From: Paludibacteraceae bacterium
Lineage (GTDB): Bacteria > Bacteroidota > Bacteroidia > Bacteroidales > Paludibacteraceae
Length of the DNA stretch: 55,493 bases
Direction of reading: 5' to 3'
Assembly (NCBI GenBank): GCA_017430235.1
Contig: JAFRNH010000013.1
Span: forward strand, 1 to 55,493
Position numbers and translations under genes: made by a program. Positions 28,502-54,167 of the stretch are shown here, in pieces. Position 1 is the stretch's first letter, and each line of letters begins with the position of its first letter. The notes beneath the pieces are model-generated. The model saw only the letters and a program-made list of their open reading frames with translations, did not search any database and was not told the origin of the DNA.

Positions 28502-28506
28502 CGTTG

Positions 28507-28901
28507 TGGAGATGCAGGGGTTCGAACCCTGGTCCAAACGAGGAAATCATAAGCTTTCTACATGCTTATTCTTGACTTCATTTTCGTACGATAGCAAGAC
28601 CAAGACCACCAACTATCGTCTTATCCTCTAAAATTTCATTCGGGCAGCGAGGCATACCCAAACTATTCCTGATTTTTCTGCGCCTCCGATTCCGACCGCC
28701 TCAGGACTTAGCATCGGGGAAACGTCTTGTCTGAACACCCGTGTCCAGATTAAGCTTCAATCTACTATTATTCGATTAAGCAGCAAGAGCATAGTTATTC
28801 TCGCCAGTTAAATTTTTGGTCTCCAAAGATTATAGTGCTAGCCACTAGCGCACTGCATGCTTACCTACCACTTCTGCCCGCTGTCAAATCCAGTCATCCC
28901 C
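28507..28901 (-). ncRNA. ssrA: Transfer-messenger RNA (tmRNA)
   Basis: The 5' end reads GGGGATGACTGGATTTGACA and the 3' end GGTTCGAACCCCTGCATCTCC plus discriminator A, so GGGGATG pairs with CATCTCC as a tRNA-like acceptor stem and the T-loop is intact. CCA is not encoded. The tag frame at 28776-28805 reads GGC GAG AAT AAC TAT GCT CTT GCT GCT TAA, giving GENNYALAA. tmRNA rescues stalled ribosomes with SmpB and marks the nascent chain for ClpXP-type proteases. The length of about 395 nt is normal for an uninterrupted (one-piece) tmRNA. Confidence 0.95.
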
Positions 28902-51790: not shown

Positions 51791-51863
51791 GGGTCAGCCA
51801 ACAAGCTGACCCCAACAAAAAAAATAATCTTTTGCTGTAAAACAAAAGATTATTTTTTATCCC
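51791..51863 (+). repeat. Double-hairpin repeat, copy A (also terminator)
   Basis: GGGTCAGC/GCTGACCC hairpin (51791-51812 region), then a second 12-bp stem AATAATCTTTTG and CAAAAGATTATT with T-run. Copy B lies at 54101-54167 in the same orientation. It can act as terminator of the small basic gene. Confidence 0.8.
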
Positions 51864-51901
51864 TTGACTTCTTCAATGTGCCATCCAATTATTTTGTAGC
51901 A

Positions 51902-51953
51902 CATTGATTTTTAATATACTCTATATAATGGCGAAAAAAAATAATGAAGTCAG
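51902..51953 (+). repeat. 52-bp repeat, copy A
   Basis: Begins CATTGATTTT, contains CTATATAATG and ends ATGAAGTCAG. Copy B (54031-54082) has exactly the same length and the same landmarks at matching positions. Confidence 0.7.
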
Positions 51954-52224
51954 GTGAAGGTGAAGATTCTTGCAGTACAAATTCTATAAGAAAATCTCAG
52001 ACATATCATAAGAGTAAAATTTTATTTGTCATATTCTATCCTCCGAAACAACTTTCTGTAATGTTCTGCGTTATCATATCTTATCGTAATAACATTGCAT
52101 ATAGGCATTCAAATTCATAGAACTACTGTAATTTTGATGGACAAAACAGTCCAAAGTGCCCTTTCGAGAACCTCTTTGCCGCTTTTAGAGCAATAATGAT
52201 TCTCTGTCTAATAGTAAAAACGTA
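51954..52224. other. Intergenic tail downstream of the HEPN operon
   Basis: No convincing gene. One frame reads NSPKCPFENLFAAFRAIMIL near 52140-52200, vaguely like a transposase C-terminus, but it is too short and uncertain to call. Confidence 0.3.
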
Positions 52225-52623
52225 TCAAGCCTCCTTAGCCCTGAATCTTTCCTCAAGAAATCTCCTTAAAGACTCACACCATTCCCTACAATCAGTGCAC
52301 TCTTCATCGGAACACAGTTCAGGTTCATAATCAGCCTTCTTACGTAATGACAACATCTTGCGAAAAAGTTTTTTCATCTTTTCTACGTCCTTAGGTTTAA
52401 TTAAGCGCGAGATTATGTCCTCTAGTGTTCGTTCATGAATATTTTCGTCCAATGGATTTTGATCTTCATAAGCCATTGGACGTAATGAAGAAACGGTTAA
52501 AGAGTACCACATCTTTTGAAGAACAGAGTAATAGAAACAGGCTATACTCTGACTATACAACCGTTTCGAGAGAAGTTCTAAACCTGCATTATAATAGACA
52601 TCGCTTCTTTGATTCATAATCAT
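52225..52623 (-). CDS. HEPN-domain protein (UPF0332-like), fourth gene of the SecB-like operon
   Basis: 132 residues, helical. The N-terminal YYNAGLELLSKRLYSQSIACFYYSVLQ and the later SLRKKADYEP match the HEPN family of the UPF0332 type, where an R-x-x-A-D-Y motif replaces the RNase R-x4-6-H motif. Several extra Cys (CSDEECTDCREWC) are unusual. The start ATG shares its A with the stop TGA of the SecB-like gene (TGATG), so translation is coupled; an alternative ATG is two codons on. HEPN proteins are often toxins or partners of nucleotidyltransferases; none is present here. Confidence 0.75.
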   Translation of the reverse strand: MIMNQRSDVYYNAGLELLSKRLYSQSIACFYYSVLQKMWYSLTVSSLRPMAYEDQNPLDENIHERTLEDIISRLIKPKDVEKMKKLFRKMLSLRKKADYEPELCSDEECTDCREWCESLRRFLEERFRAKEA

Positions 52624-53006
52624 CAGCGTTGCGACATGTTAAGCGTAGGCAATATTACAGGTTTTACTCCCGAAAGAGAGGAAAGTGTTGTAATGTATGC
52701 TCTCAAATAAGGGAATAGAATTGCAGGGGCATTGGTACGGAAAAATATTTCTTTCTCCTCGGGGTTGAGATCTGAATCGAACTCAAAAAATCCCAGAGCC
52801 TTCACCTTAATAACGAGCATCTTATTCTCATCATTAATGTTTGCAATCATCTCCAAGCGCATGTTGTGGCCTTCTTCATTAACTCCAATGGTTTGCTCAA
52901 ACTCCACATTCAGGTTCTGTGAAGCTTCTTCTTCAGGATTCGTTGAAATGTGAGATTCAACTATTTTATATCCCTTAAAACGGAATTTTGCTATTTGTTC
53001 TGCCAT
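52623..53006 (-). CDS. SecB-like chaperone
   Basis: 127 residues, acidic, no signal peptide. The second half (EKEIFFRTNAPAILFPYLRA, then SGVKPVILPTLNMS) matches the SecB core, where NAPxILFPY and a Pro-rich LPxxN motif are conserved. SecB-like chaperones in toxin-antitoxin-chaperone (TAC) systems protect an unstable antitoxin from proteolysis. It lies third in the operon, 3 bp after the unknown protein's stop and overlapping the second HEPN gene by one base. Confidence 0.82.
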   Translation of the reverse strand: MAEQIAKFRFKGYKIVESHISTNPEEEASQNLNVEFEQTIGVNEEGHNMRLEMIANINDENKMLVIKVKALGFFEFDSDLNPEEKEIFFRTNAPAILFPYLRAYITTLSSLSGVKPVILPTLNMSQR

Positions 53007-53009
53007 AAA

Positions 53010-53423
53010 TTATGCGGCTAATGCGTAATAATTATTTATGTTATTTAATTGTTTCTCTACGATGTTACTTGAATGCACTTGATAAAAATCATATTGGGTA
53101 TAGTCAAAACTTTCCTTCTTAATAACTTTCTCTTGTGAAATAAATGACCACGTTGTTTTTGTCTCAAACAATACATTAGTCATGTCATTAGCATCCGATG
53201 GAGCACATATCAAAAGACATTCATCTGGATACTGCTCCATAAAATCCATCCACAATTGCATCTCTGCCTTTTTGTAATCCACACTTCCACGACGGATTTC
53301 TTCAGGCTTTACCTCTACTATATGATACTCTGTCACTGCATCATAAGCATACTTTAACTTAATACCTTCAAAAAGTGATTCCCACCTCTTGAGAGTTTTC
53401 TTTAAGAATTCTTGTGCAGTCAT
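53010..53423 (-). CDS. Unknown protein with a tmRNA-tag-like C-terminus, possible antitoxin
   Basis: 137 residues, no signal peptide, acidic-to-neutral, no family I recognise. The key feature is the end: NNINNYYALAA followed by stop. The tmRNA tag of this organism, read at 28776-28805, is GENNYALAA, so the last eight residues differ from the tag tail only by one extra Tyr. Such a tail is a ClpXP-type degradation signal. In TAC systems the antitoxin is labile and shielded by the SecB-like chaperone through its C-terminal region. It lies second, 6 bp after the first HEPN gene and 3 bp before the SecB-like gene. Role as antitoxin is inferred. Confidence 0.7.
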   Translation of the reverse strand: MTAQEFLKKTLKRWESLFEGIKLKYAYDAVTEYHIVEVKPEEIRRGSVDYKKAEMQLWMDFMEQYPDECLLICAPSDANDMTNVLFETKTTWSFISQEKVIKKESFDYTQYDFYQVHSSNIVEKQLNNINNYYALAA

Positions 53424-53429
53424 ATTAAT

Positions 53430-53831
53430 TTAGTAAAGTTTGAATTTATCATTGATACCTTTTGCAAAATCACGAGCATATTTAACATTATCTTCGTAGA
53501 TGGACTGTCGCAATTTTTCTGGTTTGTAATCTGCTTTATTTCTTAGCATATTCGTTTGGTAGAACCATTGAACGAAGTCGTTTGGCTCAAAGTTTGACAC
53601 AGTGCTCAAACATTCTGTAAACTTTTTAATGAATTTTTGATGTGAGTTGGGGCCATTTACAAGAATCTTTTGTTCTTCATATCCAACGCCAAAGCGTGAA
53701 TTCAATAATTCTTTTGACAAGAGATATATCGAATAGTAAGCAGAATGAGCCGAAGCCTCATACCAAGCACCATCAACCAAACCATTTGCTGCATCAAGGT
53801 TGTCTTTTGATTTTTGGATATAAGAACTCAT
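53430..53831 (-). CDS. HEPN-domain protein (UPF0332-like), first gene of the SecB-like operon
   Basis: 133 residues from the ATG at 53831 (MSSYIQKSKDNLDAANGL); an ATG 12 codons upstream (53867) is possible but adds sequence unlike the family. The fold is HEPN: AHSAYYSIYLLSKELL and MLRNKADYKPEKL, again R-N-K-A-D-Y instead of the RNase motif. Similar in size and motifs to the fourth gene, so the operon holds two HEPN proteins. It would be the toxin, or one toxin and one structural partner. Upstream region 53860-53900 on the minus strand has a possible promoter but no clear -33/-7 pair. Confidence 0.75.
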   Translation of the reverse strand: MSSYIQKSKDNLDAANGLVDGAWYEASAHSAYYSIYLLSKELLNSRFGVGYEEQKILVNGPNSHQKFIKKFTECLSTVSNFEPNDFVQWFYQTNMLRNKADYKPEKLRQSIYEDNVKYARDFAKGINDKFKLY

Positions 53832-53867
53832 AATATCTTTCTTGTTAATTATACGATTTCCCCACAA

Positions 53868-54030
53868 AAATTATATTCTGCGCGGTTTTTCTTGCTTGTG
53901 AAACGCAAATTTACAATTTCTCCATCAAATATAATACATTTCAAAGAAAAATAACACAAAACGAAGTGAATTTTTACATTTAAAGGACAAAAGGCTTCAT
54001 CAATGCACCACCTAAATATTCTTTGTAAAT
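53868..54030. other. Intergenic region upstream of the HEPN operon
   Basis: Holds the promoter region of the minus-strand operon. A TTTTTG near 53866-53872 (minus) could be part of a -7 box with an extra base in the spacer; I am not confident in it. No gene or RNA seen. Confidence 0.35.
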
Positions 54031-54082
54031 CATTGATTTTCAGCCATCGCTATATAATGATGCAAAAAAGTGATGAAATCAG
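54031..54082 (+). repeat. 52-bp repeat, copy B
   Basis: CATTGATTTT, CTATATAATG and ATGAAATCAG at the same offsets as in copy A (51902-51953). About two-thirds or more of positions match by eye. Confidence 0.7.
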
Positions 54083-54100
54083 TAAATAATCCTTCATTAA

Positions 54101-54167
54101 GGTCAACATCCTAGCTGACCAAAAAAAATAATCTTTTGCCGCACAGCAAAAGATTATTTTTTTATCC
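54101..54167. repeat. Double-hairpin repeat, copy B (also metG terminator)
   Basis: GGTCA...TGACC hairpin (54101-54120), then stem AATAATCTTTTG and CAAAAGATTATT with T-runs on both strands. Nearly the same as copy A and in the same orientation. On the minus strand it ends metG, 19 bp after its stop. Confidence 0.8.

What the first reader, a model, noticed from the sequence alone, without database searches (positions are those of the whole stretch)
52225..53831. Four-gene HEPN - unknown - SecB-like - HEPN operon: candidate new toxin-antitoxin-chaperone (TAC) system
Four small minus-strand genes are packed with gaps of 6 and 3 bp and a one-base overlap, all translated in one direction. Two encode HEPN proteins of the UPF0332 type, one a SecB-like chaperone, one an unknown protein with a degradation-tag-like tail. 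In known TAC systems a SecB-like protein shields an unstable antitoxin; here a HEPN protein may be the toxin. The pairing of two HEPN genes with SecB-like is not an arrangement I can match to a described system.
Basis: partly seen in the sequence, partly recalled or inferred. Interest (0 to 1): 0.92.

Follow-up and report, generated by a model that had tools for sequence, protein, structure and literature searches.

The report
HEPN toxin–antitoxin–chaperone operon copying ssrA tag
A small mobile gene set in a Bacteroidales bacterium looks like a new kind of chaperone-guarded toxin–antitoxin switch whose antitoxin ends in a built-in copy of the cell's own "destroy me" tag; it probably lets the cell shut itself down when a phage distracts the chaperone.

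Summary
In detail: four tightly packed minus-strand genes, HEPN, unknown, SecB-like and HEPN. The first three form a conserved core. In 36 distinct loci found by searching with the unknown or SecB-like protein, a HEPN gene precedes the unknown gene in 34, and a SecB-like gene follows in 35 by HMM and one by eye. The unknown protein is predicted as a folded domain of about 90 residues without a database family plus a disordered tail. 35 of 36 tails end AA and 25 LAA, against 3 and 0 of 370 background ORFs. Three of 20 tails equal their own genome's tmRNA tag, preceded by the alanine that tmRNA does not encode. Both HEPN proteins keep the alternative HEPN-T active-site residues. The second HEPN, in 6 of 36 loci, groups with first-gene HEPNs of other three-gene loci. 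Verdict: a toxin–antitoxin–chaperone system with a HEPN toxin and an unnamed antitoxin family, inserted behind metG and also seen beside phage structural genes. Toxicity, neutralisation and chaperone dependence are untested.

The parts
53430..53831 (-). HEPN-1 (HEPN-T/UPF0332-like), predicted RNase toxin; conserved Y32 Y33 H64 R97 D101 Y102
53010..53423 (-). predicted antitoxin: folded domain residues 1-90 (a-b-b-a-a-b-b) plus disordered tail; no Pfam or PADLOC family
53013..53138 (-). predicted disordered, chaperone-addiction-like tail (residues 96-137)
   Evidence: pLDDT below 50 for 96-132; variable length
53013..53036 (-). built-in ssrA-like C-terminal degron NNYYALAA
52623..53006 (-). SecB-like chaperone of the CmdC (PD-T4-9_C) kind
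52225..52623 (-). HEPN-2, accessory toxin-type HEPN; conserved YY, H63, R94, Y99
51859..54119 (.). inserted low-GC segment (34.6% against 40.8% for the window) carrying the operon; absent at the same site in three relatives of the genus
51816..51858 (.). left copy of the 43-nt terminator-like hairpin flanking the insert
54120..54162 (.). right copy of the hairpin (91% identical), just past the end of metG
28506..28901 (-). tmRNA gene of this genome, tag GENNYALAA (coding part 28776-28805), the peptide that the antitoxin tail resembles

Best explanation
It is a toxin-antitoxin-chaperone (TAC) module with a HEPN toxin. HEPN-1 (and HEPN-2 where present) is the toxin, probably an RNase that stops translation. 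The middle protein is the antitoxin: its folded domain holds the HEPN protein inactive, while its disordered tail ends in a built-in ssrA-like degron that makes ClpXP destroy it. The SecB-like protein binds the tail and hides the degron, keeping the antitoxin alive. When the chaperone is drawn away, for example by a phage protein as in CmdTAC, the antitoxin is degraded and the HEPN toxin is freed, aborting the infection. Shown by computation: gene order and its conservation, families, tail and degron conservation, exact host-tag copies in relatives, conserved HEPN site, insertion, copies beside phage genes. Inferred: toxicity, RNA target, neutralisation, chaperone binding, ClpXP degradation, phage trigger.
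For: Conserved HEPN-antitoxin-SecB order found by searching with the antitoxin or SecB alone (read). SecB matches CmdC of CmdTAC; the same SecB scan of viral contigs recovered a true CmdT locus (L072, PD-T4-9_A 9.5e-80). 35/36 tails end AA and 25/36 LAA, against 3/370 and 0/370 background ORFs. Three of 20 tails equal A + own tmRNA tag. Folded domain plus disordered tail. [quoted passage not shown] a HigBAC TAC is activated by a phage tail protein (PMC11980606, passages). HEPN-type fold and H/R/D/Y conservation in 38 to 40 of 40. Copies near terminase, portal, tape-measure and endolysin genes on viral contigs.
Against: No experiment. The canonical HEPN Rx4-6H motif is absent, so RNase activity rests on the alternative-site proposal of PMC3710099. 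Fold hits for HEPN-1 do not reach E 0.001, and the antitoxin fold has no significant match. L010 lacks the AA end; L013 has only a 41-aa HEPN remnant. The host-tag match leans on three exact cases. No complex was modelled.
Confidence: 0.82

Rival explanations
1. Roles reversed: the tailed protein is the toxin and the HEPN protein(s) neutralise it; SecB and the degron set the toxin's lifetime.
For: The middle domain has no known family, and the HEPN proteins lack Rx4-6H.
Against: The degron is on the middle protein, and in the TACs described in the passages I saw the unstable tailed component is the antitoxin. In other three-gene SecB loci (L074, L076, L077, L091, L101) the LAA tail is on the short protein next to SecB, not on the longer toxin-like one. 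HEPN proteins keep the H/R/D/Y set.
Confidence: 0.08
2. In the four-gene form the two HEPN proteins make one heterodimeric toxin rather than two toxins.
For: HEPN-1 and HEPN-2 of the six four-gene loci each fall on one side of a branch (100/99) and branch in largely the same order. They are homologous (99.8%) and keep the same residues. A HEPN dimer is the RNase in a HEPN-MNT system (PMC7701990, passages).
Against: HEPN-2 relatives L068, L086 and L087 are the only HEPN of three-gene loci, so the type can stand alone.
Confidence: 0.4
3. HEPN-2 is a regulator (a non-toxic immunity or sensor subunit) added to a complete three-gene TAC.
For: It is the last gene, in only 6 of 36 loci, and further from the Pfam HEPN model (4 of 9 members match at E up to 0.1).
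Against: H, R and Y are invariant in 9 of 9 aligned members, and it groups with first-gene HEPNs (94/94; just under the tool's star threshold, midpoint root).
Confidence: 0.2
4. Ordinary export: a SecB for the Sec pathway with unrelated neighbours.
For: The SecB domain is real.
Against: Only 17 of 358 family genomes have a SecB match; 8 of those 17 are HEPN loci and 6 more look like CmdT- or MqsA-type TACs by eye. The order is conserved and the segment is an insertion.
Confidence: 0.02

Closest known systems
CmdTAC (PD-T4-9), E. coli anti-phage TAC
   Same: Toxin, antitoxin and SecB genes in one operon; SecB of the same family (PD-T4-9_C 2.3e-23); antitoxin with a disordered tail ending LAA
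   Different: Toxin is HEPN, not an ADP-ribosyltransferase; the antitoxin has a predicted a-b-b-a-a-b-b domain of about 90 residues and no PADLOC hit better than one stray at E 0.023 among 15 members, whereas CmdA is described as two helices plus a tail
HigBA-SecB, MqsRA-SecB and HicAB-SecB TACs
   Same: SecB-like third gene; chaperone-addiction tail on the antitoxin (passages)
   Different: Different toxin and antitoxin families; PMC5105189 names HigBA, HicAB and MqsRA as the three families associated with SecB at its date, and none matches here
HEPN-MNT (HepT-MntA) toxin-antitoxin
   Same: HEPN toxin
   Different: No nucleotidyltransferase antitoxin; a chaperone is present; D-Y in place of the Rx4-6H histidine
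HEPN-T family PF05168 with D in place of H (AF0298, 2hsb)
   Same: Top fold match 2hsb, TM 0.72/0.76; D replaces H with another conserved N-terminal H, as described in PMC3710099
   Different: Here in an operon with a SecB-like chaperone, an association not found in the papers searched

Membership tests
TAC (toxin-antitoxin-chaperone) | toxin, antitoxin and SecB-like genes in one operon | tested here: met
   HEPN upstream in 34 of 36 antitoxin loci (L013 remnant, L020 contig edge); SecB downstream in 35 of 36 by HMM, L087 by eye
TAC (toxin-antitoxin-chaperone) | SecB-family chaperone | tested here: met
   Pfam SecB above cut-off, PADLOC PD-T4-9_C, solved SecB by profile
TAC (toxin-antitoxin-chaperone) | C-terminal extension (ChAD) on the antitoxin | tested here: inconclusive
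   predicted disordered residues 96-132 after a folded domain, tail variable in length; that it binds the chaperone is not tested
TAC (toxin-antitoxin-chaperone) | ClpXP-type LAA end | tested here: met
   window protein ends ALAA; family 25/36 LAA, 35/36 AA; sequence only
TAC (toxin-antitoxin-chaperone) | toxin neutralised by antitoxin only with the chaperone | not testable with these tools
   needs expression tests
CmdTAC | ADP-ribosyltransferase toxin (PD-T4-9_A) | tested here: not met
   no PADLOC hit for HEPN-1, HEPN-2 or the middle protein; positive control L072 hits at 9.5e-80
HigBA/MqsRA/HicAB TAC | HigB, MqsR or HicA toxin with cognate antitoxin family | tested here: not met
   no such Pfam or NCBIfam hit for the four proteins
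HEPN-T (PF05168) | HEPN fold | tested here: met
   13 of 15 HEPN-1 members match PF05168 at E up to 0.1; AlphaFold pLDDT 94; 2hsb first in the fold search (E 5.4e-3, TM 0.72/0.76)
HEPN RNase, canonical site | Rx4-6H motif | tested here: not met
   R97-xxx-D101-Y102; no H at the motif position
HEPN-T variant site | D in place of H plus a conserved upstream H | tested here: met
   H64 39/40, R97 40/40, D101 38/40, Y102 40/40; proposal in PMC3710099 (passages)
HEPN-MNT TA | MNT nucleotidyltransferase antitoxin | tested here: not met
   no nucleotidyltransferase family listed for any of the four proteins or the 15 antitoxin homologues

The most novel reading that the evidence does not exclude
The antitoxin tail is a true mimic of the host's own trans-translation product: selection keeps it close to, and in some lineages identical with, A + the genome's tmRNA tag, even though tmRNA does not encode that alanine. 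The module would then be wired to trans-translation. HEPN cleavage of mRNA makes broken messages and tagged peptides. Those compete with the antitoxin either for the SecB-like chaperone (amplifying the switch) or for ClpXP (sparing the antitoxin and shutting the switch off). Phages or stresses that raise tagging would set the module's threshold.
Probability: 0.2. Interest if true: 0.88.

Novelty: new variant of a known kind. Interest (0 to 1): 0.74.

Why it matters
It adds a HEPN toxin and a previously unnamed antitoxin family to the chaperone-guarded toxin–antitoxin systems. In the window's taxonomic family it accounts for 8 of the 17 genomes with any SecB match. Exact copies of host tmRNA tags in three distantly related antitoxins, and the same ending on a CmdTAC-like antitoxin whose host tag is unknown (L091), suggest that these antitoxins imitate a cell's own destruction tag. 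That makes a direct test possible of how TACs are coupled to ClpXP and trans-translation. The second HEPN poses a clean question: one antitoxin and one chaperone for two toxins, or one heterodimeric toxin.

Tried and rejected
Tried without result: family libraries for the middle protein (nothing but one PHROG at E 0.11; only stray single-member matches at E 0.02-0.07 among 15 homologues); relatives of the single protein in viral contigs (none) and plasmids (none); phages gave one partial (L009, contig edge). Fold searches of the middle protein gave nothing at E<=0.001, only weak KH-, BolA- and RimP-like hits and one phage protein; I draw no function from these. The pattern A-G-[D/E/K/N]-N-N-Y-A-L-A-A-stop in viral contigs: 0. 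VIA-align was not available. Papers on PDB entries 9xbd/9xbc: none relevant.

Considered and rejected: capture of the tmRNA tag by DNA recombination, because the exact tails differ from the tmRNA at synonymous sites and carry an alanine codon that the tmRNA lacks. Host-tag matching is not uniformly strong: without the three exact pairs p=0.07, and relatedness of genomes is not controlled. Whether the D1 repeat occurs elsewhere in the genome is open: one search found no further near-identical copy, but it also failed to return the known 74% left copy, so diverged copies would be missed.

Rows dropped before the count of 36: duplicates L028 (=L002), L032 (=L003), L034 (=L006), L080-L084 (same places as earlier loci) and L092-L097, L099, L102 (same loci seen by SecB); L008/L085 (broken gene); L009 (contig edge); L025, L027, L088 (weak or spurious); L070 (partial antitoxin frame, no HEPN seen); L069, L072, L074, L076, L077, L091, L098, L101, L103, L104, L106 (SecB loci without the HEPN/antitoxin pair); L100, L105, L107 (unclear). 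Dropped before the 20 tag-tail pairs: G023 (ARAGORN tag implausible), G179, G552, G664 (no tmRNA gene called) and G492 (none called by ARAGORN). The 370 background ORFs are mechanical ORFs of 120 aa or more, not all genes, and the cut-off leaves out the shorter antitoxins of other TACs.

Full report
OBSERVATION. The first HEPN could start at 53831 (ATG) or at an in-frame TTG at 53867. The proteins are SecB-like (Pfam above cut-off; PADLOC PD-T4-9_C); HEPN-1 (below cut-off alone; 13 of 15 aligned homologues match PF05168 at E up to 0.1, best 1.1e-6); HEPN-2 (identified through its family: profile comparison with HEPN-1 at 99.8%; 4 of 9 members match PF05168 at E up to 0.1; no PDB sequence relative); and a middle protein with no Pfam or PADLOC family (among 15 homologues only stray single-member matches).

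CONSERVATION. Searching with the middle protein or its alignments gave matches in 8 of 300 and, with a larger alignment, 11 of 358 genomes of the window's family, 17 of 393 of its order, 4 of 395 of its phylum (two of the four, own and G462, were already known, and one, G1071/L027, is spurious), and 7 loci in the named genome collection (titles name Prevotella, Prevotellaceae, Paludibacteraceae, Paludibacter, Bacteroidaceae and Bacteroidales). A SecB search of viral contigs gave 13 loci. HEPN was not used in these searches. Among 36 distinct antitoxin loci kept (dropped rows under Tried and rejected), a HEPN gene lies directly upstream in 34 (L013 has a 41-aa remnant, L020 ends at the contig edge); a SecB-like gene lies downstream in 35 by HMM and in L087 by eye. 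The extra downstream HEPN occurs in 6 of 36: L001 (window), L002, L003, L029, L030, L031.

HOST. Equal contig lengths identify G062 (L002) with L028, a Paludibacteraceae assembly from yak rumen, and G061 (L006) with L034, Paludibacter, so the family is probably Paludibacteraceae (inference). Antitoxins of loci titled Prevotella or Prevotellaceae (L029, L030) are 78-79% identical to the window's, which fits horizontal transfer.

THE TAIL. Of those 36 C-termini, 35 end AA, 25 LAA, 17 ALAA, 16 YALAA; of 370 other ORFs of 120 aa or more in the same DNA, 3 end AA and none LAA. tmRNA genes were looked for in 31 TAC-bearing genomes (23, 2, 6) and tags read by ARAGORN. Twenty HEPN-TAC genomes had both a usable tag and a tail. 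G488 and G462 have tag GENNYALAA and tails ending AGENNYALAA; G602 has tag GNDYNYALAA, seen in no other of the 20, and a tail ending AGNDYNYALAA. G646 is near (GNNNNYALAA; tail AGKNINYALAA). The leading A is not encoded in the tmRNA reading frame; that it comes from the alanine carried by tmRNA is established knowledge (recalled). The DNA differs at synonymous positions, so the match is at the peptide level. Matching of tails to their own genome's tag exceeds shuffled pairings (33 against 21.1 identities upstream of the last five residues, p about 0.001), but it leans on the exact cases: without G602 p=0.017, without G488 and G462 p=0.007, without all three p=0.07. Relatedness was not controlled. 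The window's own tail, NNYYALAA against tag GENNYALAA, is similar, not identical. A CmdTAC-like antitoxin in the same family (G177, L091; identified by eye) also ends AGENNYALAA; no tmRNA was found in its assembly, so its own tag is unknown. Five further genomes with other SecB loci had tags; where an antitoxin could be read (L098, L101, L104, L106) its tail did not equal the tag.

STRUCTURE. AlphaFold with 15-row alignments gives the middle protein a well-predicted domain (residues 1-90, a-b-b-a-a-b-b) and a disordered stretch 96-132. Foldseek found nothing at E<=0.001. HEPN-1 is predicted with pLDDT 94. Its top six Foldseek hits have probability 1.00 but E 5.4e-3 to 0.16: 2hsb, 1wol and 1o3u are titled HEPN, 2q00 is listed as HEPN in PMC3710099, 1ufb has no such title. 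By sequence its profile matches 9xbd_A at 8e-10; the companion entry 9xbc_A has F for Y in the same motif, which hints that this tyrosine was mutated on purpose (inference; no paper found).

HEPN SITE AND TREE. In 40 HEPN proteins (34 first, 6 second): Y32 40, Y33 39, H64 39, R97 40, D101 38, Y102 40 (numbering of HEPN-1). PMC3710099 (passages) describes HEPN-T members where D replaces the motif H and another, N-terminal H could complete the site; this family fits that description. The six HEPN-2 lie on one side of a branch (100/99), next to L086, L087 and L068 (94/94, just under the tool's star threshold; midpoint root), each the sole HEPN of a three-gene locus. So HEPN-2 is probably itself of toxin type, and the four-gene operon a three-gene module plus a second toxin-type HEPN.

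CONTEXT. In G143 (flanks 96% identical) and G054 (90-93%) metG is followed by one copy of a 43-nt terminator-like hairpin; L111 (78-89%) shows the same. The window has two copies with the operon between them, an insert of about 2.3 kb with GC 34.6% against 40.8%. A weaker direct repeat pair (74%) lies just inside; whether it recurs elsewhere is open (one search was not sensitive enough to return its own second copy). No integrase-like ORF is in the insert. Ten neighbour proteins of eight viral loci were scanned; eight matched PHROGs, among them terminase (L068, L070), portal (L067), tape-measure (L065, L075) and endolysin (L066); those of L071 and L073 had none. This fits carriage by prophages and a role in phage conflict, without proving it.

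CENSUS. 17 of 358 family genomes have a SecB match. By my reading 8 are HEPN loci, 5 have a toxin gene resembling CmdT and one resembles MqsA (both by eye, not confirmed by PADLOC), and 3 are unclear or spurious. A further HEPN locus (G158, L087) escaped the Pfam SecB search. On this reading the HEPN type is the commonest TAC in the family.

MECHANISM. Best reading: HEPN toxin held by the antitoxin's folded domain; the tail carries the degron; the SecB-like chaperone covers it; loss of chaperone leads to ClpXP degradation and toxin release. This follows CmdTAC, where a phage capsid protein takes the chaperone and the antitoxin is degraded by ClpP (PMC11618068, passages), and the M. tuberculosis TAC, where chaperone site and ClpX degron lie in the same tail (PMC8165232, passages). 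For the present family every functional step is inferred.

LITERATURE. Searches for HEPN with SecB or TAC terms and for ssrA or tmRNA with antitoxin and SecB showed no described HEPN TAC and no report of full tmRNA-tag copies in antitoxins. Of the nine papers that hold both HEPN and SecB I saw passages of all nine; most others were seen only as listings, none was read whole, and only open-licence PMC papers were searched. That TAC antitoxins end LAA is already in print, so the degron as such is not new. PMC5105189 names HigBA, HicAB and MqsRA as the three antitoxin families found with SecB at its date (passages); PMC4257090 notes that SecB outside proteobacteria is mostly TA-associated (passages).

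VERDICT. Real, conserved, mobile; a new variant of a known kind (TAC), with tag mimicry as its most surprising part.

Noticed in passing
window 51816-54162: Operon inserted between two copies of a 43-nt terminator-like hairpin behind metG; empty site in G143 (L109), G054 (L110) and L111. A second, 74% direct repeat pair (51893-51953, 54022-54082) lies just inside.
   Followed up: partly
L074, L076, L077 (viral contigs): Three-gene SecB loci with a different, unclassified toxin-like gene and a short protein ending LAA; no PADLOC hit for those two proteins in L074 and L076.
   Followed up: no
L091 1118-1408 (G177): CmdTAC-like antitoxin (by eye) that ends AGENNYALAA, i.e. alanine plus the common tmRNA tag of this group; its own tag unknown.
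   Followed up: partly
L072, L103, L104: CmdTAC-type loci with the toxin gene after SecB rather than first; CmdT confirmed by PADLOC only in L072.
   Followed up: no
L008/L085 (G201): Antitoxin gene broken off and followed directly by a transposase-like ORF (399-1322), a natural disruption of this gene.
   Followed up: no
PDB 9xbd/9xbc: Solved HEPN proteins related to HEPN-1; the two chains differ Y to F in the R..DY motif, suggesting the tyrosine was tested by mutation.
   Followed up: partly
L086 1071-2315 (G139, same genus): A three-gene locus with a HEPN-2-type first gene in a congeneric genome, antitoxin tail DNHYALAA, tmRNA tag GENNFALAA.
   Followed up: partly
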